A DNA stretch of 64,000 nucleotides from an uncultured Verrucomicrobiota bacterium. GTDB taxonomy: Bacteria; Verrucomicrobiota; Verrucomicrobiia; Opitutales; Seribacteraceae. Positions 45,757-61,133 of the stretch are shown in pieces (positions within the stretch are counted from its first letter, which is position 1; every line of letters begins with the position of its first letter). The position numbers were made by a program, and so were the translations under genes. The stretch covers positions 1-64,000 of the forward strand of contig CACMZN010000007.1 of the NCBI GenBank assembly GCA_902618175.1, in the 5' to 3' direction. The notes below the pieces were generated by a model that did no database searches, had not been told where the DNA came from, and worked only from the letters and a program-made list of their open reading frames with translations.

Positions 45757-48367
45757 TTACGGATTAACGAATAAATCCGAGGTAACCACTTCGACCACTA
45801 AGTCTCGAAAACCAAGATTCTCTTTTTCAACCTTTTCAAGAATACGGTCGATTTCCGGACGATCTGAAATCCCCATCTGCCGACCCAGTGCATATTCCAT
45901 GAGTTTGTTGGTCAGGGCACGCGCAAATTTTGAATGCTGGTCACGGAAATGCCACATAAATTCTCCCACATCCTTGAATTCCTTACCTCCTGGCAGAACT
46001 CCAGATGCGTCAATTTCTTTCCTTAGTCCATAAGTCGAACGGTAGCGTCCGATGGCGTCAAAGTTTTCAAGAGCAAATCCCAAGGGGTCGATCTTACGGT
46101 GACACTCGGCACAAGTTGGATCAGAACGATGCTTCTCCATTTGATCCCGAATGGTAGTGGATCCACGTATGTCCGGTTCAATTGCTTCAATATCGGGCGG
46201 GGGGGGGAGAGGGAGGAGTTCCGAGAATATTTTCCAGTAGCCAGACTCCCCTAATGATTGGGGATGTGTCCACTCCGTTCGCAGTGACCGTGTGAATCGA
46301 AGCCTGCCCAAGTAAGCCGCCCCGTGGATGTCCGTTGGTGTTAACTTTAATAAAAGAGTCTGGAGACTTGAATCTGGAACTTGGTAGATCGATTTGATAA
46401 TGACGGGCCAAAGCAGGATTCATGAACGAGTACTCAGCAGTGAGAAATTCGGACGTGGGTAAGTTCTTATCGAGAATATGACGAAAGAAAATATGGGTTT
46501 CCTCGTGCATGGCAGTAGCGAGATCGTCGGTGTAGTATTCCCTGAAGCGATTCTGATCGGGTGGGGTGGTTCCCAAATTATCTAGGGTAAGCCAGGCGTC
46601 CAGAAAGCCGTCCACAAACCGGTTTGACTTTGAATCTCCGAGCAGACGTTCAGTCTGTTCTTTAAGGACGGCGGGATTGGAAAGCTCACCTTTACGGGCC
46701 AAGGTAAATAATTCGCGATCAGGCATCGAGGACCAGAGAAAATAACTTAGACGCGAAGCAATCGCATACGGATCAATTTTTTTCGTCTCAGGTTCCGGTT
46801 CTTCCTGTAAGTAAATAAAATGAGGGGAGCATAGGGCTGCCTTTAGTGAATCCTTAAATGCTTGCCAGGAATCGATCCCCTTGGATTTACGGGCTTGATA
46901 AACTCCGTAAATGGCATCGATTTGGGTTTCTGTAGGGGGACGACGATAAGCCTTTTTGAGAAAATCCGACAATTGAGTACGAATCATACCCGGTTCATAG
47001 GTAGTTCCTCCAAGAATTTCCTTGTGCGTACGAGTGGGCCAGTGATCAATGATCGGTCCGCTCAGGAAAAGGTGATGAATCCTAACCTGTGGAAGTTTGG
47101 CATGTTGAAGACCGTATACTAAATTTTCATTTCCGGTGGAGAGGGGAGGCAGGCCGTCTCTAAGTCGGAGAAACTGGGCTGCTTCAATGTGGGCAACTCG
47201 GGTAAGGTGTGATCCATTCAGAAAGATTAGGCGAGGAGTGGATCCACGGTTTAGCCAAATGCGGGCATGGTACTTTTTTCTTTTCCCGTCCACCATTTCG
47301 AAGCGAGCCAATTTGGGCTCAAGTGGCTGAGGCAAATGAAGAGGGCCAACTTTGATATTGCCCGGCACTACGGCGAGACGAAACGGTTCGTCCGTTCGGG
47401 TACGGGCAAAGTTTTTCTCATAGGGTGGTACCCGGTAAAGGGCGGTGGCATCAAAAGCGAAGAAGTAGTATCCATCAAATGGCACGCCTTCTGAAAAGTC
47501 AGACATGTATGCATAGGAACCCATATGTCGCTGGGACCTGGGATGTTCGTAAAGGCGGATATGATTGGGAATGTTTTCCACGTCACGCAGAATGGATTCG
47601 AAATTTTCAGTCAGCGATTTCCGGCGCATGGCGAGTTTTTCTGGGGACATTGAATCTGTCATGCCCTTTAAGCCCCAACTCACGGATTTAAGCGGTTCAT
47701 CTATCAATTCTCGTTTCTGCACACTGGTCATGAACCCGGTGAATTCACCCTGTTCGAAATTACCGTTTTGAATCCATTCCCTAGAAACGGGCTTGTTGAG
47801 CGAGGGCAGGGCTTTTTCAACCACTAGATCCGAGGCTCGTAAATATTGATCGAGCAAAAAACCCGATGTGATTAAGGCGTGCCCCTGATTGTCAAGGTGA
47901 TGTATCTCCTTATCCGATGGGAAGCCTTCAGTCGGATCAAAGGAATCGGTGTTGAGATGAAAAAGATCACTTACGGTATGAAGATATTCTCTGCGGTTGA
48001 GGCGTCGAAGGACGGTCTCTCCGCCGGTGTTCTCACGCTTTGCTTGAGCCTCTGCAATCGCTGAAGTGAGCCAGGCCACAACTTTTTTTACTTCAGAAGG
48101 ATCGGGTCGAGGTTCCTCCTCGGGAGGCATCTCCCCAAGGTTTAACTGGTCAAGAATATCCTGAAAGAGGAGCAGATCCTCGTCATTTTGAATGGGGTGT
48201 GTGAGTTGGTCATAGCGCCGGTCCGCTTTTTGCTTTTCCGGACCGTGGCACTTGAAGCAGTGATTTTGCAAAAAGGGTGTAATTGTGGAATCAAAATGAA
48301 CATTGGCATGTATGCTCGTCAACACACAGAAAACACCGAATATGTACAGAGACAATTTTCTGCCCAT
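45757..48367 (-). pseudogene. DUF1592-type cytochrome-like exported protein, interrupted by +1 frameshift at C9 tract (46199-46207)
   Basis: ORF 46187-48367 ends ...[20 protein letters not shown] 45757-46311 continues [53 protein letters not shown] in the other frame; with C8 the reading frame is continuous (2610 nt). Confidence 0.85.
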
Positions 48368-49739: not shown

Positions 49740-52700
49740 TTAACTTTTCGGCAATTGATGTATGGTTAAGTAAACGGGGCCTGAAAACTCTCCCCCATTT
49801 CTCGCCCGAACGTGGAAATCAAGTTTGAGATTGTGACAAATTTGCAATTCGGGGATAGTCAAGATAAGTTTTCTGCTTCCTTCGCGAAGCTCCATTTTTT
49901 CAACCTTCCACTCATCTTTTCCTCTTGTTTCGGGTTTGGAGAAATTATAGGGAGGAGACCCATACTCCTTTGACCAGCGGTAATTCCATGCGGTGGCTGT
50001 GAATGAATTGTGATTGATTGAATCTGGATCAATGCTACTGGTGAAAGCGAGCTCAATTCTGCCCTCCCGCGCCTTGACATCCTTTAAATAAACACCTTTT
50101 TCTCCAGTAAAACGTAACCTCTGAATGCTGCCTTCGCGTGTTGCACCTGCCTGCCATCCTGTCAATCCGGAAAAATAAAGTTGTCCGTCGATTGGATTCT
50201 TCGCTACTCGCATGGTACCAGACTCCATTTTCAAGGGTAGACGATAAACCGCTCCCTGCGTAGTCTTGTCCAAATGGTCGAGCATGACGTACATGGTGGC
50301 TGCTCTTCCGTAGGAAGTGTGAAAGTACTGTCCGCTAAGTGGACCAAGTCGAGCATCTTGGGGTACCCATAATTGAGCACCACTCGAGCTGTCGAGTTCT
50401 TGCGGCATGTATACGATGGGCTGGACGATTTTCTCTGGATCATACCTATCTCCATGCTTAAACCAGGATCCAGCACCGTGAAAGGCATTAAAGTGGGTGA
50501 TCGAGATTTTGCTGGCAGGCACGTAGGTTCCTTGGTTATCTGCAAATGTGATGCGGCCGTCGGGCAATCGACCAATTCCGTTGGGAACACGCATACCCAC
50601 TCCCATAACTTTTGAACTTTTACCGTCGGGAGCCACGCAGACGATTCCACCCGGAACCGTCCATTGGCTGAAACCACCGGTTCGACTGTAGAAATACGAG
50701 CCGTCTTGTCCTATCTCTAGATCGAAGTTGTAAGCATGCCAGCCTGAGCTTGGTTCGTCTTCGTTGAAGAATGCTTCATAGTAATCCGCTTCTCCATCTT
50801 GGTTGTAGTCGTGCAACTTCACGATCCTTCCGCGGGTCGTTGCCGTGAGCACACCGTCAACCACTTTCATTCCCAAGGGCTCGTAAAGTCCGGCAGCGAA
50901 TCTTTGCCATTTGATTCCATCGAGCATTTCGTTTATCCCGTTTATAATCCAAACATCTCCGGACAAGGTGGCCACAGCCATTCTTCCGTCTGGAAAAAAG
51001 GCAAGGCAAGAGGTTCTCATCCAAGAGTTGTAAGCATTGGAAAAAGGAATTTCCATGCTGTCCATTGCATAGCCTTGAAAAGTTGAAGTTTCCAGTCTGC
51101 CTTTCAATTTGTGAATGATATTCCAGCGTCTTGGTCCACCGTTAGTTCGCGGGAGCAAATCGATGATTTGGGCGGAAGGAGTTTCCCTGCGCAGCCCCCC
51201 ATTCTCATCATGACCCAATACAAGTTCAAAACGCAGATCTTCAAGAGAGGATGGGACATGCAAAACCAACTTTCCGTCTTGACTTGCCCTGAACTGAATT
51301 CCGTCATTTCGAGTCACAAGCCAGACGACTGAATCTCCGACGAATGCACAGTCACCCATAATTTCGGGTTCGCCTTCAAGAATGATGAGTTCCAAAGGAT
51401 GATTTCCTGATTTAACCGTCATTCGATGACGTATCACGGAATGCTTTTTTATTTTTTCTAGAACAGGACTTTCCAACACTCCACGATTCTGCACCGAATA
51501 GGAAAGAATGATTTCCTTTCCAAACACATAGTGGCCACGGTAACGAATTTGTTCCTCTGGCCAAACGGTCTTGGGAAAAAGATCGGGTATCTGATTTTCG
51601 GCTTTCCCTCCCCAAGCCCAGCGCCATCCTCTTCTCCCTGGAATGACTTCGAATCGAGCGGACGGCAAACCACCTGCTCGGAGTTTATGATGCAAGGTAT
51701 CGCTTAGATCAAGAAACCCACCCTTCCAAGCTCCGATGATACTCATTGTCCCCAGGTCGTAGGAAATTGTGGTTTCCTTTCCCAGATCTATGGTTAGAGC
51801 GTTCAAACTCTTAACGTTTCCCACGACGGGGGAAATCAAGGCATTTCCATAATCTCGGAGATATCCGGATTGAGCCAAATCTTCAATCCGTTTGGCTTCC
51901 TCATGGTAACTTTTCTGACTTCTTGGCATTTTCCGAATGTAGTTTGAATCTATTTCGACTAAAAGATTCGGAGCTTTCTCTTTGATTATGTTTTGTCGAA
52001 TGTAGTGAATGACTTGGTAACGTTCATCGGGTTTGAGTTGCACCGAGGGCATCATATTTCGATATCCATAAGTCAGAGTTTTGAACATCGAGTAAGGATC
52101 CCCACCATTTTCCATCTTGTGCTTGGTGAACATTCGCGAAAGTTGATTGAGGGGTGGCGTCAACCCATCTTTGCTGTGGCAGGAAGTGCAGTTTTCAAGA
52201 TAAAGCTTCTTTCCTTCATCCAGATAATTTTCTTCGAAAAACGACGGATCGTAGAGAGCGAGTTTGTGGTGATTGACGTTTTCGAAATCGTTGAATGCGA
52301 TCAAGGAATCCTCAAATTCCTCACCATTGATCAATTTCTCTATCTGAGTCTCATTAAAGGCAGTATCGAATAGGAAAAAATCATCAATCAGACCATCAAA
52401 AAAATACTTTTTCTCATTATTTTTCAATACGGCGGCTCCAAAGTGGTAGTCGTCGAATTTAGTTGCATGACCCATTTGACCTTTTCTGCCTTGTCCCTTT
52501 TTCTCTCCATTCAGGTAAAAGGCTGGCCCCATCTCCTGATCATAAGTCATTGCCAAATGGTGCCAAGTACCTTGACGTATTCCTTTGATCCTACAACTCC
52601 ATGGTTTTCTTTTCCTAGTATTGTCGCTGAAAAGTAGTGAGTCTTCATTGAAAATCATGCGATATCCACGCCCTTTACTCCGTTCGGTGAGAATTTCGAA

Positions 52701-52970
52701 AAGAACTCCTTTTTTTTCCGAGCGAAGTTTGAACCATAAAGAAAGAGTCCATCCGGACAATTCACCGACCGGAGTACCACGATAATATCCCTTGCTCAAT
52801 GCCAAACCCGAGCCTTGGGCTGGGAGACCGTTTTCCGCGATAGGTCTTCGACCATCATCATATTTAATTCCGGACTCTTTTCCCTTGCTGATGAATCCGC
52901 TTAGAAAGACAACTGCGTTCATCAGAAAAAAAGTGCGAAGAAGGAAACTTTTCATCAAATTAGCTTTCAT
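49740..52970 (-). CDS. LamG-like + cytochrome c + DUF6797/PQQ-propeller-type exported protein
   Basis: LamG-like LSGWTLSLWFKLRSEKKGVLFEI..TWHHLAMTYD; heme site CTSCHS; propeller-like region SWMRTSCLAFFPDGRMAVATLSGDVWII; DARLGPLSGQYFHTSYGRAATMYVML. Confidence 0.75.
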   Translation of the reverse strand: MKANLMKSFLLRTFFLMNAVVFLSGFISKGKESGIKYDDGRRPIAENGLPAQGSGLALSKGYYRGTPVGELSGWTLSLWFKLRSEKKGVLFEILTERSKGRGYRMIFNEDSLLFSDNTRKRKPWSCRIKGIRQGTWHHLAMTYDQEMGPAFYLNGEKKGQGRKGQMGHATKFDDYHFGAAVLKNNEKKYFFDGLIDDFFLFDTAFNETQIEKLINGEEFEDSLIAFNDFENVNHHKLALYDPSFFEENYLDEGKKLYLENCTSCHSKDGLTPPLNQLSRMFTKHKMENGGDPYSMFKTLTYGYRNMMPSVQLKPDERYQVIHYIRQNIIKEKAPNLLVEIDSNYIRKMPRSQKSYHEEAKRIEDLAQSGYLRDYGNALISPVVGNVKSLNALTIDLGKETTISYDLGTMSIIGAWKGGFLDLSDTLHHKLRAGGLPSARFEVIPGRRGWRWAWGGKAENQIPDLFPKTVWPEEQIRYRGHYVFGKEIILSYSVQNRGVLESPVLEKIKKHSVIRHRMTVKSGNHPLELIILEGEPEIMGDCAFVGDSVVWLVTRNDGIQFRASQDGKLVLHVPSSLEDLRFELVLGHDENGGLRRETPSAQIIDLLPRTNGGPRRWNIIHKLKGRLETSTFQGYAMDSMEIPFSNAYNSWMRTSCLAFFPDGRMAVATLSGDVWIINGINEMLDGIKWQRFAAGLYEPLGMKVVDGVLTATTRGRIVKLHDYNQDGEADYYEAFFNEDEPSSGWHAYNFDLEIGQDGSYFYSRTGGFSQWTVPGGIVCVAPDGKSSKVMGVGMRVPNGIGRLPDGRITFADNQGTYVPASKISITHFNAFHGAGSWFKHGDRYDPEKIVQPIVYMPQELDSSSGAQLWVPQDARLGPLSGQYFHTSYGRAATMYVMLDHLDKTTQGAVYRLPLKMESGTMRVAKNPIDGQLYFSGLTGWQAGATREGSIQRLRFTGEKGVYLKDVKAREGRIELAFTSSIDPDSINHNSFTATAWNYRWSKEYGSPPYNFSKPETRGKDEWKVEKMELREGSRKLILTIPELQICHNLKLDFHVRARNGGEFSGPVYLTIHQLPKS

Positions 52971-53039
52971 CTTCGGGTAAGAATCGTCCCACAGTAGCCC
53001 AATAGGATTTTTCGAGACTTCGACTCGAAGGGATGAATC

Positions 53040-54095
53040 TCAACTTGCGACTTTTTCGCGGTATGATTCAACCTCCCAATTCTCTATGAATTCACGAGCT
53101 CGAACTGTCATGTATTCGACTCCTCCAAATGCTTGCGAGAGTTGAAGGACTTGTGCGCCGTCTTGAGCAAAGAGCAAAGCAAGCCTTGCATTCTTTTCCG
53201 TCCTACCCAAACCATAAACCCGGTCTTTTTGAACCACTACCTTTGGAGCGAACCCATGCTTCTCTCGATAGACTTCGACATTTTCCTTAGTCAATTCTTC
53301 AGTAAAAGGATAAGCCCGGGCATAGACCAGATGATCGGGGGTTAGAGGTCCGATAGCGCATTGAAAAAATCCGGATGATTGGATGAATGCTGCGTCTTCT
53401 CCAAAAAAACTTCCTATCTTGTACTCTTGTTCGTACTCCCTCTCGGTTTCGGTAATTTGAAGTTCTTCACGAATGCCATGCCTGTGGTATTCCAAACGAA
53501 GCGATTCCATGACATCCGCATAGAGCGATCGGATTTCTTCCGCAGTGTTACCGGAAACGAATATTCCATGATTTTTCAACATGATGATCTTGGGAATGCG
53601 ACCGGTACTTTTTTTGTAAGCATCGATGCGGTTCTTCAGTACCATGCAAAGAGTGAAGCCTGCATCAACGTACTCGACCCACAGAGCGTTGGGAAAAAGC
53701 TTCTTACTGATGGACTCTCCGTCTTTTGCGCAAGTCATGCCGTTGACAAGAAGAGCATGAGTATGAACTACGAATTTGGTTTCGAGGATATTGTGAAGGG
53801 GAGCTTCTACGGAAGGACGACCAGAATTGTTAAGGACGGCTTTGGACATGTAGTTTCTGACCAATTCTTCTCTGGCATGTGGTTCATCGGGAGTCTTGAC
53901 TTCGTAAAGTCCATTTACCTTGGATCGGTCGAGAGTAACGAAAGTTTCTTCTTTCAGTCCGGCTAAAGTGGTCCCAGAAGGCTTTACCCAGAGAGTCTGC
54001 TTGTCTTTGTATGAGGTATTTCCTCCTCCTCCCTTGACGTATTGAGGTGTTCCAAATTCATGAGAGAGTTGGACTATGGTCTTGAGATCATGCAT
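53040..54095 (-). CDS. Class II aldolase/adducin family protein (RhaD-type aldolase-like)
   Basis: YVKGGGGNTSYKDKQTLWVKPSGTTLAGL, VEAPLHNILETKFVVHTHALLVN, IMLKNHGIFVSG. Confidence 0.88.
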   Translation of the reverse strand: MHDLKTIVQLSHEFGTPQYVKGGGGNTSYKDKQTLWVKPSGTTLAGLKEETFVTLDRSKVNGLYEVKTPDEPHAREELVRNYMSKAVLNNSGRPSVEAPLHNILETKFVVHTHALLVNGMTCAKDGESISKKLFPNALWVEYVDAGFTLCMVLKNRIDAYKKSTGRIPKIIMLKNHGIFVSGNTAEEIRSLYADVMESLRLEYHRHGIREELQITETEREYEQEYKIGSFFGEDAAFIQSSGFFQCAIGPLTPDHLVYARAYPFTEELTKENVEVYREKHGFAPKVVVQKDRVYGLGRTEKNARLALLFAQDGAQVLQLSQAFGGVEYMTVRAREFIENWEVESYREKVAS

Positions 54096-54238
54096 AGCAT
54101 AATCTCTAAAAGAGATTTGTGGCTTCTGCGAGTGGAAACTCGAAGACCAAGCCAAACTAACGGGATGTTTTCCTCATTGGATTAATTTTCTCCGTTATTT
54201 CCACAATGCTTTACTTTGAGGAGGGATTTCTGTTTGAT

Positions 54239-54973
54239 ATGGGAGTGGAGATTTTTCTCAAGTTGAATGGTGAACAGGTGGGCCCTTATCAGCTCGATGA
54301 CATAAAGGGTTGGTTGGAAGCGGGTCATATTTCAGTGGATGACACTGCTTGGTTTGAAGGATGTTCGGATTGGATCGAAGTGGGCGAAATTCCAGGCGTC
54401 GACCGAAAAAAAGCAAAGACTTACGTTAAATCAGATTTGGTTTTGCCTTTCGAAGCCTACATAGGTGAAGACCCTTATGTATTCGTTTGTTACGCCCACA
54501 AGGATTCGCCTCTGGTTTTTGAAGAACTCAAGGAATTGGATAACGCTGGATTTCGAATTTGGTATGACGAAGGGATTGGAGTAAGTTCGGAATGGCCTGA
54601 AGAAATTGCCAAAGCTGTTCTCGGATGCTCCGTATTCATGGTTTTCATCTCACCCGATGCCACTGCATCGATTAATTGTAGAAATGAAATCAACCTCGCC
54701 TTGGATGAGAAAAAACCCTTCTTGGCCGTTCATTTGGAAGAGTCCATTCTTCCCCCCGGTTTGAGATTGAGAATGGGAGACTTGCAGGCGATTCATCGAT
54801 ATAAGCTGTCTCAAGAACATTATTCGAAGAAGGTACAAAAAACTCTTCGACTTTTCTTAGATGATCATTCTCAAGGGCAAGAAATTGCTCGCTCGAAGAT
54901 AGTCGAACCTGTCAAAACCCGTAGAAGGAAGGGTTCCTCCCAAAACTTGAAGGAAACCAAGCCCCCCAAATAG
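54239..54973 (+). CDS. GYF_2 (DUF4339)-like + TIR domain protein; probably the N-terminal half of a frameshift-split gene
   Basis: FLKLNGEQVGPYQLDDIKGWLEAGHISVDDTAWFEGCSDWIEVGEIPGV; DPYVFVCYAHKDSPLVFEELKELDNAGFRIWYDEGI...INCRNEINLALDEKKPFLAVHLEESILPPGLRLRMGDLQAIHRY. Confidence 0.88.
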   Translation: MGVEIFLKLNGEQVGPYQLDDIKGWLEAGHISVDDTAWFEGCSDWIEVGEIPGVDRKKAKTYVKSDLVLPFEAYIGEDPYVFVCYAHKDSPLVFEELKELDNAGFRIWYDEGIGVSSEWPEEIAKAVLGCSVFMVFISPDATASINCRNEINLALDEKKPFLAVHLEESILPPGLRLRMGDLQAIHRYKLSQEHYSKKVQKTLRLFLDDHSQGQEIARSKIVEPVKTRRRKGSSQNLKETKPPK

Positions 54974-54989
54974 GAAACCTTTCTATTTA

Positions 54990-56693
54990 TTGGGATTAAT
55001 CTGCGGATTCATTCTTTTCTTGGGTCTTTTCTTGGGTTTGCAAAACGAGACTCCCCAAGAAGATAATTCCAACGTTAAAATTCTTTCTCTAGGCGAACCG
55101 TGGGCCATTTCAAGAATTGGGCTTGAAATGCTGTGGTGTCCACCCGGGAAATTTCTAATGGGTAGTCCGGTTGATGAGGCAGGTAGAAAAGAAAACGAAA
55201 TCCAGCACAAAGTAACGCTGAAGAAGGGATTCTATTTGGGAAAGTATGAAGTGACTCAAAAGCAATGGGATTTGGTAATGGGAAGTTCTCCAAGTTTCTT
55301 CAAGGGAGAAAACAAACCAGTGGAAAGAATATCTTGGCACGATGCCAAATCCTTTTGCGCAAAATTGACCGAACTGGATCGAAGTGACGACCTTTTGCCT
55401 GAAGGTTGGAAGTATGATCTTCCTACTGAAGCAGAATGGGAATACGCATGCAGAGCAGGCTCGACCATGGCCTTTGCATGGTCTGAATCCATCGATTCTT
55501 CCAAGGCAAATTTTAACTTAGACATAAATTCTACTCGAGAAATTGGTTCCTATCTATCGAATTCGTGGGGATTTTTTGATATGCACGGAAATGTCATGGA
55601 ATGGGTTACGGACAATATGGGAGCTTATTCCTCCATCCCCGTAATAGATCCAATGGGGCCTTCCAAAGAGTCCAACAAGGTCATGAGAGGCGGGTCTTGG
55701 GTTCATGACGGCATACAACTGCGATCCTCTGAGAGAGCCTCTGCGTTTCCAAGCGTCTCCGGAGTATACATTGGATTTCGGCTTGCTTTCAAGCCGGAGA
55801 ATTTGGATATGACTCCACCCGAAATTGAAGTGCTTGGAGGAACGGAAATCATTCATGAGGCAGGATTAAACTGGCAGGATCCTTGGGTTGTTGCAAAAGA
55901 TGCACGGGATGGGAACCTGTCCGCTCTGGCAAAGACTATGGGGGTCGTGGAGGTAAATAAAACAGGATCATATGAAATTCTATACAGTGTTGCAGATTTT
56001 TCAGGAAATGAATCCAATGCCAGCCGAACTGTAGAAGTTGTCGATACTACTGGGCCTGAAATTACCCTTATTGGTAAAGCAATGCCCTCTTTGGCAATCG
56101 ACTCCTCATGGGTGGATCCGGGAGCAGCGGCGTTCGATCTGGTTGAGGGCGATCTTAGTCGGGGTGTGGAGGTTTCGGGGTCTGTGGATGTTTCGGAAGT
56201 GGGATTTTACGATATAATCTACTCGGTTTCAGACAGTAGTGGAAATGAGTCGAAAAAAAAGAGAACTGTAGTTGTCGTCGAACAAGGGGAGTTCAATAAG
56301 ATGATGGGTTCTCTGGAAATTGATCATATTGACCGCAATGTCACAGCTATGGAAAGTGAGACTCGAGAACAAGAGTCACTGATCGTAAGTTCGCCAGAAC
56401 TACTCCAGGCGGTAATGAATTGGACGCAGGTCCCGGAATCAGTTTTTCCATCCATTGAGAAAGTGGAAATTCATCAAGATCTTGAAATTAAAATCATTGA
56501 TGAAGAAGGAGAACAAATTGCATCCAATACAATTCTTAAGGGAACAGAGGTAGTTGCCATTTCCCTGGAGGGGGAGGTTCTTAAAATCTCTCCCAATCGC
56601 GAATCCAAGATGATTGGTTCCATCAATGTAGATCAGACCAATTTCAAACTCAAGGTGGCTGAACTTTTTGAAAAGAACAAAAGAGAAAGGTGA
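54990..56693 (+). CDS. TM helix + SUMF1 (FGE-sulfatase-fold) + two DUF5011-like Ig domains; no ATG start, probably continuous with upstream TIR ORF
   Basis: LLGLICGFILFLGLFLGL; MLWCPPGKFLMGSPVDEAGRKENE..YEVTQKQWDLVMG..NKPVERISWHDAKSFC..DLPTEAEWEYACRAG..DMHGNVMEWV..KVMRGGSW; TPPEIEVLGG.. and TGPEITLIG.. Ig-like repeats. Confidence 0.85.
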   Translation: MGLICGFILFLGLFLGLQNETPQEDNSNVKILSLGEPWAISRIGLEMLWCPPGKFLMGSPVDEAGRKENEIQHKVTLKKGFYLGKYEVTQKQWDLVMGSSPSFFKGENKPVERISWHDAKSFCAKLTELDRSDDLLPEGWKYDLPTEAEWEYACRAGSTMAFAWSESIDSSKANFNLDINSTREIGSYLSNSWGFFDMHGNVMEWVTDNMGAYSSIPVIDPMGPSKESNKVMRGGSWVHDGIQLRSSERASAFPSVSGVYIGFRLAFKPENLDMTPPEIEVLGGTEIIHEAGLNWQDPWVVAKDARDGNLSALAKTMGVVEVNKTGSYEILYSVADFSGNESNASRTVEVVDTTGPEITLIGKAMPSLAIDSSWVDPGAAAFDLVEGDLSRGVEVSGSVDVSEVGFYDIIYSVSDSSGNESKKKRTVVVVEQGEFNKMMGSLEIDHIDRNVTAMESETREQESLIVSSPELLQAVMNWTQVPESVFPSIEKVEIHQDLEIKIIDEEGEQIASNTILKGTEVVAISLEGEVLKISPNRESKMIGSINVDQTNFKLKVAELFEKNKRER

Positions 56694-56787
56694 CTAACCT
56701 AATAAGTCGGAAAAAGTTTTTGAGTCCGCCTACCTCATCCCAATTTGGAAAGTCTATGAACGACTTGTGATAGGACGTCATGATACA

Positions 56788-58332
56788 TTATTGTGAACTT
56801 CGGTAAACTTGGTTTTTTTCCCACTCGTTCCAAAGACTTGACAAGCGTTTGACTCTCTCTGGATAAGTTGTAGTGAGATCATTCAATTCAGTTGGATCTT
56901 TTTCAAGATCGTAGAGTTCCCAGCGTGCGTTTTTTTTTCCATCTCGGTTGAAAACGAGTTTCCATTTTCCGAATCTAATAGCTTTACCACGGGCATGATG
57001 GAAGAAAAGGAAAGCTGGATCCTTTTGTTTCTTTCCTAAAAGAGAAGGGAGAATCGATCGTCCGTCCAAGGTAATTCTCGGAGAACCTTGGAATTTCTCA
57101 GCAGATTTACCTCGGGTTGCATGCAGGATGGTAGGCATGAGATCAACGAGGTGGGAAAGCGTCTTGCTGATTTTTCCTGATTCCTTGATTCTTCTTGGCC
57201 AGTGGGCAATCATGGGAGTGCGGATTCCCCCCTCATGGTCATATTGTTTGAAAAGTCGAAAAGGAGTATTGGATAAGTTGGCCCATCCATGACCGTAACT
57301 TTGGTAAGTAATTTCAGAGCCTGGCATGATATCGGACAGATTGCCCGGTTTCATGGGTTGGCCATCGCGGGTTTTTTCCGGCAGGTAATCACCTTTTCGA
57401 TTTGGTTGGTATTCAATGTGACATCCACCATTGTCGATGGTGAAAAAAGTTAGTGTGTCCTCAAGTTTACCGGACTTCCGCAAATGATCGATGATCTTGC
57501 CGATCACCTCGTCCATTGCAGTGACCTGAGCAGCATAGACTTCCATTCTTCTCTCCTGCCAAGCTTTGTTTGGCTCATTTTTCCAAGCTGGGACTTTGGG
57601 ATTACGAGGGGACAGAACCACTTTTGAATCAATCACTCCGAGTTCCTTCATACGCTTCAGGCGCTGAATCCGAAGGTTGTCCCAACCCGCAGCGAACTTT
57701 CCATGATATTTTTCAATTGCGGCGGCGGGGGCATGCAGTGGCCAGTGGGCAGCAGTGAAAGGCAGATACAGAAAGAACGGATCTTCGCTGGATGTTTCCC
57801 TTAAGAAAGCGATGGCTTCCTTACCAATGGCCTGAGTGAAGTAGTAATCGGGATCGTCCATAAATTCATGGTCAATTGAGTTCCGGTTTCTTTTCAATCC
57901 AAAGGGAGCGAAGAAACTACTGGCTCCTCCAAGAATTCCATAGAATTGATCAAATCCCCGGCTATCCGGATAGTCACCGAGATGCCATTTGCCCATGATG
58001 CCGGTTCTGTATCCCTCTGACTTAAGAGCTTCGGCGAGAGTGAGGCAACTTGGATGAAGGGCGCCATCTCTGATGGAAGTTCGATGGTACACTCCAGTCA
58101 TCATGGAAGCTCTCGAAACCCAGCACATGTTTTCACTGTAGAAGTTGGTGAAGCGAATTCCCTCGTTAGCCAAGGAATCCAAATGTGGAGTGCGGATTTC
58201 CCCTCCGAAGCATCCGATATCGGAATAACCCATATCGTCTGCCATAACCAGCAGCACATTTGGACGCTCGGAAGCAAATCCATTTGCGATGGCAAAGAGC
58301 GAAATGAAAATAATCTTCAGAATACGCATCAT
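56788..58332 (-). CDS. Sulfatase
   Basis: RPNVLLVMADDMGYSDIGCFGGEIRTPHLDSLANEGIRFTNFY; CWVSRASMMTG; GIMGKWHLG. Confidence 0.93.
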   Translation of the reverse strand: MMRILKIIFISLFAIANGFASERPNVLLVMADDMGYSDIGCFGGEIRTPHLDSLANEGIRFTNFYSENMCWVSRASMMTGVYHRTSIRDGALHPSCLTLAEALKSEGYRTGIMGKWHLGDYPDSRGFDQFYGILGGASSFFAPFGLKRNRNSIDHEFMDDPDYYFTQAIGKEAIAFLRETSSEDPFFLYLPFTAAHWPLHAPAAAIEKYHGKFAAGWDNLRIQRLKRMKELGVIDSKVVLSPRNPKVPAWKNEPNKAWQERRMEVYAAQVTAMDEVIGKIIDHLRKSGKLEDTLTFFTIDNGGCHIEYQPNRKGDYLPEKTRDGQPMKPGNLSDIMPGSEITYQSYGHGWANLSNTPFRLFKQYDHEGGIRTPMIAHWPRRIKESGKISKTLSHLVDLMPTILHATRGKSAEKFQGSPRITLDGRSILPSLLGKKQKDPAFLFFHHARGKAIRFGKWKLVFNRDGKKNARWELYDLEKDPTELNDLTTTYPERVKRLSSLWNEWEKNQVYRSSQ

Positions 58333-58468
58333 TCCTGAATCGGAAGGAGAAATCGGGAACTCGTCAAGGGAGCAAAGTGAATTACGAAAAAAAAGAATTC
58401 GAATTCCTCACTTTGAAGCTGACCAGTGCCCCAAGTTCTCTTTGGATAAGAGACTTGTCCAAATAATC

Positions 58469-59836
58469 ATGTACCCGAACCTTTTTCTATTTTCATTTTT
58501 CCTTCTTTGTTGCGTCTCGGCCAACGCCGGCAAGCCCAACTTCGTATACATCATGGTCGATGACGCTGGCTATGGAGACTTCTCCTGTTTTGGCCAGAAG
58601 AAATTCAAAACTCCCAATGTTGATCGAATGGCAAGGGAAGGGATGAAGTTGACCGACTTCTATTCCTCAAGCACGGTATGTGCCCCGTCTCGGTCCAGTC
58701 TGATGACTGGTCATCATTCGGGCCGCGGTTACATTCGTGGAAACAAGGAAATCAAACCCGAGGGTCAGCATCCACTACCATTGAAAGCGGTCACGATTCC
58801 TGAAGTCCTGAAAAAGTCCGGTTACGTTTCCGGTATGTTCGGCAAATGGGGACTCGGTGCTCCCGGTTCAGAGGGAGACCCAATGAATCAGGGATTTGAT
58901 CGGTTTTACGGACTGAACTGTCAGCGACAGTCCCATAATTTTTATCCCACTCACGTTTGGAGTGACCGTAAGAAGGTCATGCTGGATCGTAAGCATTACT
59001 CGCACAACTTGATTGCGGAAGAGTGCTTGAAATTCATTCGGGCAAATAAGGATAATCCGTTTTTTTGCTATGTTCCCATCACCATTCCTCATGCAGCTAT
59101 GCAGTCACCGGAAGAAAGGATTGCTCCTTGGAGGAAAAAGTTTCCAGAGTTTGAAAAAGTGACCGGGAAGTATGGCGGATCCGTTATCACAAACCCGGTG
59201 GCAGCCTTTGCAGCGATGATGGAGCATATGGATGAAGATGTGGGTCGGATTCTTGATCTGCTGGAAGAATTGAAGATCGAAAAAGACACCTTGGTGATTT
59301 TTACCTCGGACAATGGGCCTCATAAAGAGGGAGGACACATGCCTGATTTTTTTGATAGTAATGGTCCGCTCAAGGGTTACAAGCGAGATCTTTATGAAGG
59401 AGGTATAAGGGTTGCCACGCTTGCCTGGTGGCCGGGCAGGATCAAGTCCGGGACCACGAGTTCACACATTGCAGCAGGTTGGGACTTGTTGCCCACGCTG
59501 TGCGAATTGTCAGGCACTGAAGCGCCTACTGGAATAGATGGAGTCTCCTTTGCCCCCACACTATTAGGCAAGTACAAGGAACAGGAGCAAAGGGATTATC
59601 TTTATTGGGAATTCCACGAACAGGGGGGCAAGCAGGCTGTCCGCATGGGCAAATGGAAGGGAGTTCGTTTAAATGTCAAAAAGGATCCCAATCATCCCAT
59701 CGAACTCTATGATCTTTCAAAAGACGTTGGCGAAAAAGATAACGTCGCTTTCAAGCATCCCGAAATTGTTCGCAAATTAGAGACTGCAATGAGGGATTCT
59801 CACCGAACAAATCCCATTTTCCCATTCATCAAGTAA
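58469..59836 (+). CDS. Sulfatase (arylsulfatase-like)
   Basis: KPNFVYIMVDDAGYGDFSCFGQKKFKTPNVDRMAREG; CAPSRSSLMTGHHSGRGYIRGN; start refined to MYPNLFLF. Confidence 0.94.
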   Translation: MYPNLFLFSFFLLCCVSANAGKPNFVYIMVDDAGYGDFSCFGQKKFKTPNVDRMAREGMKLTDFYSSSTVCAPSRSSLMTGHHSGRGYIRGNKEIKPEGQHPLPLKAVTIPEVLKKSGYVSGMFGKWGLGAPGSEGDPMNQGFDRFYGLNCQRQSHNFYPTHVWSDRKKVMLDRKHYSHNLIAEECLKFIRANKDNPFFCYVPITIPHAAMQSPEERIAPWRKKFPEFEKVTGKYGGSVITNPVAAFAAMMEHMDEDVGRILDLLEELKIEKDTLVIFTSDNGPHKEGGHMPDFFDSNGPLKGYKRDLYEGGIRVATLAWWPGRIKSGTTSSHIAAGWDLLPTLCELSGTEAPTGIDGVSFAPTLLGKYKEQEQRDYLYWEFHEQGGKQAVRMGKWKGVRLNVKKDPNHPIELYDLSKDVGEKDNVAFKHPEIVRKLETAMRDSHRTNPIFPFIK

Positions 59837-59870
59837 TCCGAAAAGAGTTTTTAGCTGAGGAAGGAGCTCC

Positions 59871-61133
59871 TTATTTGGCAAATGCCGGGATCAGTTCTTC
59901 GGGTAATTCCTTAAGCATCTTGCCCATGCCCTGATTGTGGGCTGTGGCAGCCACCACAAGATCAAGGGTGGGAAATACGAATATGAATTGCCCACCCGCT
60001 CCACGTCCCTGAATCACCGGATACTTCTTATCATGAATTTCCCTAGTCTGATGCCACCAAAAGTAACCATAAAAGTTTTCTTCATTGGTTTGAACAAGTG
60101 GGGAGGTGGCTTTTTTGACAAAGGCTCTGGGAAGAAATTGCTTTCCCTCCCATTTTCCATGGTTCAAGGTAAGCAAGCCTACTTTGATCATATCCCGTGA
60201 GCGAATGCTGGATCCGGCTGCGGATTTCGGGTATCCGCTCAAGTCCTCTTGCCAATTGTAATTGGATATGCCCAAAGGCTTCAGCAAATGTTCACGAATG
60301 AATTGCTCGGCACTTCCAGGCACCACGGCTTCAAGTATCTGCATCGTGAGTACGGGATCGGATGCTTGGTATTTGAAAGGCTTGGGAACAGGTGGAAGGG
60401 GGCGGGTGAAGTGAAGATAAGCTTGAGCCTGACCTTGACCGGTCAACAGTTCTGGTCGACTGAGAATATCCGGAAGACGTTTTTGTGGAAGTGAAATACC
60501 CGAACACATACGCATGGCTTGATCCAAGGTGATCTTCCCAGCTCCTTCGGCCAATTGGGAGGAATCGATTTGACTGAGAAAGGAGACCGCGGGTTTGTTT
60601 AGGTCTTCCATGGTCAGGTGTCCCAATTGGATGGCCCGGCCAATGGCATAAGCGGTGTAGGACTTGGTGATCGACATTTGATAATGAGGATAATTGAGCC
60701 TGCCTCTGCGATAATAAGCCTCGAGAATCAGTTTTCCCTGGTGAGCGATGAGTAAGCTGTCGGTATTTCCGAATTTCGTACTTCCGGAGGGTTCTGCGAG
60801 AGAATTGGCATACGAGAGAATGCTTGCCCTATCCTTGACTTCCGACCCGAGTTTTCCGACCTGCAATTGATCCCGACGATCTCTGGGAGATGTATTGAGG
60901 TAGGGCTTCTTGAGGTAGGGAAGTTTTTTTTCGTTTTCGAAGGAAACGTCATTGGCGTTCAGGTCTACGACTTCGGGGCCCAATCCGGTGTCTACCAATT
61001 CACGGCTAAGGCAAGAAGTAAGAAAAAGACTGAGAAAAACTGAAGTTTTCAAGAGTTTGGATAGGATAAGTGGTTCATTCAAAAATGAATGGGGAACCCA
61101 ATGAACTTGACTGGGATTGCGGGAAATTACCAT
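59871..61133 (-). CDS. Serine hydrolase, beta-lactamase class C-like; probably a lipoprotein (true start downstream of 61133)
   Basis: YQMSITKSYTAYAIGRAIQLGHL (SxxK), YNWQEDLSGYPKSAAGSSIRSRDMIKVGLL, YGYFWW; LFLTSC lipobox. Confidence 0.85.
   Translation of the reverse strand: MVISRNPSQVHWVPHSFLNEPLILSKLLKTSVFLSLFLTSCLSRELVDTGLGPEVVDLNANDVSFENEKKLPYLKKPYLNTSPRDRRDQLQVGKLGSEVKDRASILSYANSLAEPSGSTKFGNTDSLLIAHQGKLILEAYYRRGRLNYPHYQMSITKSYTAYAIGRAIQLGHLTMEDLNKPAVSFLSQIDSSQLAEGAGKITLDQAMRMCSGISLPQKRLPDILSRPELLTGQGQAQAYLHFTRPLPPVPKPFKYQASDPVLTMQILEAVVPGSAEQFIREHLLKPLGISNYNWQEDLSGYPKSAAGSSIRSRDMIKVGLLTLNHGKWEGKQFLPRAFVKKATSPLVQTNEENFYGYFWWHQTREIHDKKYPVIQGRGAGGQFIFVFPTLDLVVAATAHNQGMGKMLKELPEELIPAFAK

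What the first reader, a model, noticed from the sequence alone, without database searches (positions are those of the whole stretch)
54239..56693. Receptor-like GYF-TIR-TM-SUMF1-DUF5011x2 polypeptide
The 54239-54973 ORF encodes a GYF_2-like domain and a TIR domain that keeps the CRNEINLAL motif, with the acidic residue typical of enzymatic TIRs. The next ORF starts with basic residues and one hydrophobic helix (RKPFYLLGLICGFILFLGLFLGLQ), then a SUMF1-fold domain and two Ig-like DUF5011 repeats. Joined, this gives a cytoplasmic TIR, one TM helix and an extracytoplasmic lectin-like sensor plus Ig domains. The layout resembles a Toll-like receptor and differs from the usual soluble TIR NADase defence proteins. 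A role in sensing or abortive infection is inference.
Basis: partly seen in the sequence, partly recalled or inferred. Interest (0 to 1): 0.85.

Follow-up and report, generated by a model that had tools for sequence, protein, structure and literature searches.

The report
Membrane TIR receptor-like protein, split frame
A Verrucomicrobiota genome carries a frame-broken gene for a protein laid out like an immune receptor (a TIR signalling domain inside the cell, one membrane helix, a lectin-like sensor outside), and it belongs to a small bacterial family in which the same inner TIR part is paired with different outer parts.

Summary
The anatomy is real. ORF1 (54206/54239-54973) has GYF_2 and TIR_2 domains. 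The halves lie in different frames, broken at 54951-54973 beside a C6 run. A same-genus genome has the whole architecture in one uninterrupted 818-aa ORF, so the fusion is real and the window copy is a recent lesion or an assembly error. The TIR keeps the NADase-type glutamate and models like SARM1. The SUMF1 domain lacks the FGE cysteine pair. Predicted topology is N-inside; the tip recurs in a predicted lipoprotein. GYF-TIR-TM proteins form one clade found only in this bacterial family (15 of 42 genomes; none outside it in samples of 384 class and 388 phylum genomes), with SUMF1, LamG, Ig or LRR ectodomains. The TIR is conserved; the ectodomain diverges faster. Best reading: a single-pass type II receptor whose ectodomain binds a ligand and whose TIR makes an NAD-derived signal. 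Function is inferred. The layout parallels kinase-TM-SUMF1 receptors of the PVC superphylum; TIR as output is the new variant.

The parts
54206..54973 (+). ORF1, GYF_2-TIR half (255 aa from ATG 54206; ATG 54239 is the likelier start, with a GAGGAGGG Shine-Dalgarno-like stretch upstream and agreement with relatives' starts)
54254..54394 (+). GYF_2 domain
   Evidence: PF14237 1.9e-10; profile matches solved chain 7z3c_A
54479..54823 (+). TIR_2 domain
   Evidence: PF13676 2.9e-18; AlphaFold pLDDT 83.5 for GYF+TIR; best solved match SARM1
54686..54688 (+). Codon for the putative catalytic glutamate (NCRN-E-INLAL), invariant in 11 of 11 GYF-TIR proteins
   Evidence: correspondence to SARM1 E642 rests on the shared motif (family knowledge)
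54951..54973 (+). Zone of the frame break between ORF1 and ORF2; contains a C6 run at 54962-54967
54984..55040 (+). Single transmembrane helix YLLGLICGFILFLGLFLGL, basic residues before, acidic excess after (predicted N-in)
54990..56693 (+). ORF2 as listed (567 aa from TTG); its frame is open from 54951
55125..55787 (+). SUMF1/FGE-like domain without the FGE cysteine pair (RGGSWVHDGIQLRSSERA)
   Evidence: PF03781 1.9e-44
55827..56045 (+). Bacterial surface Ig-like repeat 1 (approximate limits)
   Evidence: PF16403, two stretches; alignment
56061..56276 (+). Bacterial surface Ig-like repeat 2
   Evidence: PF16403
56370..56690 (+). C-terminal tip domain, homologous to the C-terminal part of a genus-wide predicted lipoprotein

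Best explanation
The locus encodes, in one damaged or mis-assembled copy, a single-pass type II membrane receptor: cytoplasmic GYF_2 and TIR domains, one signal-anchor helix, and an extracytoplasmic part made of a SUMF1 (C-type-lectin-fold) domain that has lost the FGE active site, two Ig-like spacers and a lipoprotein-derived tip domain. Shown: the domain order in one intact ORF in a relative, family-wide conservation of TIR and helix, exchange of the ectodomain, faster divergence of the ectodomain. Inferred: the ectodomain binds a cell-surface, phage or glycan ligand; binding clusters the TIRs; the TIR cleaves NAD+ to give a nucleotide signal or NAD depletion that acts on an effector encoded elsewhere; the GYF_2 domain docks a cytoplasmic partner.
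For: One intact 818-aa ORF with identical architecture in same-genus L003/G014. TIR and its glutamate invariant across 11 GYF-TIR proteins with several different C-terminal halves. TIR model matches SARM1, SPARTA and AbTir TIRs. One strong helix after the TIR in every GYF-TIR-TM protein scanned, with a basic excess before it in most. Tip domain recurs in 223-312-aa ORFs of 21 of 23 same-genus genomes; the one read in full starts with a lipoprotein signal. dN 0.11 for TIR against 0.29 SUMF1 and about 0.5 Ig and tip, dS saturated: both halves under purifying selection, ectodomain faster. Tree: one GYF-TIR clade with the LRR form nested among SUMF1 forms. A more distant TIR-TM-SUMF1 of the same class abuts SLOG, SLATT-like and patatin genes, the patatin matching PADLOC phospholipase effectors at 1.6e-38.
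Against: The window copy itself is frame-broken. No ligand, activity or phenotype is known. No adjacent effector or defence gene, only sulfatases, an aldolase and glycan enzymes. The gene is accessory: absent from the same site in G016. The SUMF1-Ig-tip half could not be modelled confidently (pLDDT mostly under 50). Charge bias around the helix is mixed in L003, L050 and L051.
Confidence: 0.55

Rival explanations
1. Glycan or environmental sensor: the SUMF1 domain binds (sulfated) polysaccharide fragments and the TIR module regulates neighbouring sulfatase and glycan genes, with no role in immunity.
For: Neighbours are two sulfatases, a class II aldolase, a 3-keto-disaccharide hydrolase and a glucoamylase-like protein; in G014 the gene again sits near the counterpart of the same sulfatase.
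Against: Sulfatases are extremely abundant in these genomes (42-177 matches per genome), so adjacency says little. Other family members lie at unrelated loci. The aldolase-sulfatase unit exists without the receptor in G016.
Confidence: 0.25
2. Two independent proteins, a soluble GYF-TIR and a membrane SUMF1-Ig protein, translated separately.
For: In the window they are two ORFs; TTG 54990 has an AGGA about 14 nt upstream.
Against: That start lies inside the helix with no basic N-region, and no ATG exists before 55128. The relative is one ORF, and the other GYF-TIR proteins run through the TM, apart from one copy with in-frame stops.
Confidence: 0.05
3. On the state of this copy (a separate question from function): it is a genuinely inactivated pseudogene, not an assembly error.
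For: Two copies in G016 carry in-frame stops; the orthologous site is empty in G016, so loss happens in this family.
Against: Only one lesion in 2.4 kb with every domain otherwise open. A second frame break in the same window splits a PSCyt3 domain exactly at a G9 run, which favours homopolymer error or slippage.
Confidence: 0.4
4. Programmed frameshifting or phase variation at the C6 tract switches between a soluble GYF-TIR and the full receptor.
For: The break lies beside a homopolymer next to a stop codon.
Against: The intact relative has no such tract at the linker; C6 is short for slippage; four other C6 or G6 runs lie inside intact ORFs nearby or elsewhere in the window.
Confidence: 0.05

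Closest known systems
PVC-superphylum Ser/Thr kinase-TM-SUMF1 receptors (PMC11032199)
   Same: Cytoplasmic catalytic domain, one TM helix, SUMF1 domain reported mostly on the periplasmic side
   Different: Here the output domain is TIR (with GYF_2), not a kinase
Metacaspase / FGE-sulfatase proteins, incl. the cyanobacterial form with two TM helices between the domains (PMC3501461)
   Same: Cell-death-type domain joined through membrane helices to an FGE-like domain
   Different: Caspase-type effector, two TM helices
FGS-domain conflict systems and DGR targets (PMC7159879, PMC8195603, PMC10907252)
   Same: Lectin-fold FGS/SUMF1 domain proposed as invader sensor, associated with TIR effectors
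   Different: Described there with STAND, vWA/MoxR or EAD partners, often intracellular and often with a reverse transcriptase; none of these was found at this locus
Toll-like and IL-1 receptors
   Same: Cytoplasmic TIR, one TM, external ligand-binding part; Ig domains as in IL-1R
   Different: Reverse order (type II), different ectodomain, NADase-type glutamate; convergent layout
TM-less TIR-SUMF1 paralogues of the same bacterial family (dnaE - TPR-S/cyclase - TIR-SUMF1 - lysS)
   Same: TIR (36-44% identical over the aligned part) plus SUMF1
   Different: No TM, no GYF_2; conserved core locus

Membership tests
Toll-like / IL-1 receptor | Type I topology: N-terminal ectodomain, TM, C-terminal cytoplasmic TIR | tested here: not met
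   TIR is N-terminal and the ectodomain C-terminal
Toll-like / IL-1 receptor | Single TM separating TIR from an external ligand-binding part | tested here: inconclusive
   One predicted helix; tip domain shared with a predicted lipoprotein; topology predicted, ligand binding untested
TIR NADase | TIR fold | tested here: met
TIR NADase | Conserved glutamate in helix C | tested here: met
   E of CRNEINLAL invariant in 11 of 11
TIR NADase | NAD+ cleavage | not testable with these tools
   Needs biochemistry
Thoeris / other listed TIR defence systems | Strong match to a listed TIR model plus its partner gene | tested here: not met
   Only weak ThsB hits in ORF1 (E 0.025); no hit at 0.001 for the intact relative; no partner among the neighbours examined
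Formylglycine-generating enzyme | Active-site cysteine pair | tested here: not met
   RGGSWVHDGIQLRSS in the window against RGGSFLCHWDYCLRYR in a separate FGE of the same genome
DGR-diversified FGS sensor | Reverse transcriptase and template/variable repeat | tested here: not met
   No RVT_1 match in G000 (67% complete) or G014; no TR/VR-like repeat within 52500-60500
PVC kinase-TM-SUMF1 receptor | Cytoplasmic kinase domain | tested here: not met
   GYF_2-TIR instead
PVC kinase-TM-SUMF1 receptor | Single TM with SUMF1 on the far side | tested here: met
   (predicted topology)

The most novel reading that the evidence does not exclude
A bacterial family of surface receptors with a constant intracellular GYF-TIR NADase and interchangeable extracytoplasmic sensors (SUMF1, LamG, Ig, LRR): a functional counterpart of Toll-like receptors that senses ligands outside the membrane and signals through NAD-derived nucleotides.
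Probability: 0.4. Interest if true: 0.82.

Novelty: new variant of a known kind. Interest (0 to 1): 0.62.

Why it matters
The well-characterised bacterial TIR defence proteins act on intracellular triggers. A TIR joined through one membrane helix to exchangeable external binding domains, including LRR, would let a bacterium turn an outside signal into an NAD-based response, and would make the convergent origin of Toll-like layouts testable in bacteria.

Tried and rejected
FGE-enzyme reading: rejected, cysteine pair absent while a separate FGE has it. DGR-diversified sensor: not supported. Membership in Thoeris or another listed system: not met. Separate-proteins reading: disfavoured by the intact relative and the start-codon survey. 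Full-length AlphaFold of the relative was poor beyond the TM (mean pLDDT 44.1), so no fold claim is made for SUMF1-Ig-tip from the model; the GYF-TIR model was good. Literature searches for TIR with FGE-sulfatase or sulfatase-modifying factor found no paper describing this fusion, but only open-access papers are held; searches on bacterial GYF domains in gliding motility found nothing.

Full report
Observation. ORF1 (54206-54973; likelier start 54239) contains GYF_2 and TIR_2, and the following frame contains a hydrophobic helix, SUMF1 and two Ig-like domains, all above Pfam's own cut-offs. The two halves are in different frames. ORF1 ends with TAG at 54971-54973 and the ORF2 frame is open only from 54951, so the break falls inside a 23-bp overlap that includes a C6 run. 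ORF2 offers no ATG before 55128 and only TTG codons inside the helix.

The fusion is real in a relative. A same-genus genome (G014, record JABGWZ010000206, Opitutia bacterium; Verrucomicrobiota) holds one 818-aa ORF with GYF_2, TIR_2, a helix, FGE-sulfatase, two PF16403 repeats and the same tip. By domain its identity to the window is TIR 81%, GYF 64%, SUMF1 61%, Ig 48% and 53%, tip 46%, helix 14%. Its contig ends in a sulfatase that is the counterpart of window 58289-59836 (85-87% identical); the rest of that gene and two more counterparts of window genes lie on G014:C163.

State of the window copy. It has one lesion in 2.4 kb. In the same window a second gene (PSCyt3/PSD2 protein) is split between frames exactly at a G9 run at 46199-46207, which favours homopolymer error or slippage. 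Against that, two GYF-TIR copies in G016 carry in-frame stops, so decay also occurs in this family. I cannot separate these without reads.

Topology. All GYF-TIR-TM proteins scanned have one strong helix after the TIR; basic residues prevail before it in the window and in L004, L044, L045, L046 and L048, while L003, L050 and L051 are mixed. The tip domain recurs in ORFs of 223-312 aa in 21 of 23 same-genus genomes; the copy in the window's own genome begins MSSRNVFLSLILCLLISC, a lipoprotein-type signal (read by eye). Together these place SUMF1, Ig and tip outside the cytoplasm. The topology is predicted, not measured.

TIR. The glutamate of CRNEINLAL is invariant in 11 GYF-TIR proteins. An AlphaFold model of GYF-TIR (mean pLDDT 83.5) has SARM1 as best solved match, followed among others by TLR15, SPARTA and AbTir TIRs. 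NADase activity is plausible but unproven. The GYF_2 profile matches a solved domain of a gliding-motility protein (7z3c); from general knowledge GYF domains bind proline-rich peptides.

SUMF1. The best solved matches are PvdO, a Treponema variable protein and the lipoprotein PorK/GldK. The FGE cysteine pair is missing, while another protein of the same genome (C23) has RGGSFLCHWDYCLRYR. It is most likely a binding domain.

Family. GYF-TIR is found in 15 of 42 genomes of this bacterial family and in all four genera. Searches of 384 class and 388 phylum genomes (overlapping samples) found no GYF-TIR outside the family; two TIR-only matches appeared in the class. C-terminal halves seen: SUMF1; SUMF1-SUMF1; SUMF1-LamG-SUMF1 (with a stop); SUMF1-LamG-LamG-tip; SUMF1-Ig-Ig-tip; a second GYF then TM and LRR-like repeats (weak LRR_4 match); and two without Pfam matches. 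The tree gives one GYF-TIR clade (84/81) with the LRR group (100/100) nested among SUMF1 forms beside L004 (85/95), which means the ectodomain was exchanged. By Nei-Gojobori dN is 0.11 for TIR, 0.29 for SUMF1 and about 0.5 for Ig and tip with saturated dS: constant output, faster-changing sensor, all under purifying selection.

Context. The window neighbours are glycan enzymes, not defence genes. In G016 the aldolase and sulfatase that flank the receptor gene and the second sulfatase in the window lie next to each other, about 115 bp between aligned ends, so the site is empty there and the gene is accessory. Two related settings point to signalling or conflict. A TM-less TIR-SUMF1 paralogue lies in a conserved dnaE - [TPR-S plus cyclase] - TIR-SUMF1 - lysS locus (dnaE and lysS named by eye). 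A more distant TIR-TM-SUMF1 (G331) abuts SLOG, SLATT-like and patatin genes, the last matching PADLOC phospholipase effectors at 1.6e-38. These are leads by association, not proof for the window gene.

Comparison with the known. [quoted passage not shown] cyanobacteria have metacaspases joined through TM helices to FGE (PMC3501461); FGS domains are proposed invader sensors linked to TIR and other effectors (PMC7159879, PMC8195603, PMC10907252). The present family uses TIR in the kinase's place. I found no paper describing it, within an open-access library. The resemblance to Toll-like receptors is one of layout only, with reversed order.

Conclusion. Real architecture, broken copy, new variant of a known receptor layout. 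Sensing with an NAD-based output is the best-supported mechanism but untested; a glycan-sensing role is the main rival.

Noticed in passing
window 45757-48367 (-), G9 run at 46199-46207: A PSCyt3 domain is split between two frames exactly at a G9 run: a second homopolymer-linked frame break in this window.
   Followed up: partly
L046:8918-10621 (-), L047, L048, L049: GYF-TIR-GYF-TM-LRR-like proteins at a conserved locus (near nth- and clpB-like genes) in genus g2: LRR-like ectodomain with a cytoplasmic TIR, in reversed Toll-like order.
   Followed up: partly
L010:7998-9206 (+): A 403-aa GYF-GYF-TM-LRR-like protein of an Opitutales genome that looks like the LRR form with the TIR missing.
   Followed up: no
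L090:3649-8450 (-): Gene run of TIR-TM-SUMF1, SLOG (YAcAr), SLATT-like and patatin: a likely nucleotide-signalling defence system that PADLOC recognises only in part.
   Followed up: partly
L053:7210-12221, also L052, L054-L057, L095: Conserved dnaE - TPR-S/cyclase protein - soluble TIR-SUMF1 - lysS locus across the bacterial family, an unusually core setting for a TIR gene.
   Followed up: partly
L093:5922-7685, L094:6749-8425, L092:2-1399: Proteins with a signal-like N-terminus (lipoprotein-like in L093), an unannotated middle and a C-terminal TIR: possibly true type I, Toll-like orientation.
   Followed up: no
L059:1234-2013 (G000:C13): Genus-wide predicted lipoprotein of unknown function whose C-terminal domain is also the tip of the TIR receptor.
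   Followed up: partly
G003, G012, G014, G016, G019, G026: 42 to 177 sulfatase-type matches per genome: extreme sulfatase expansion.
   Followed up: no
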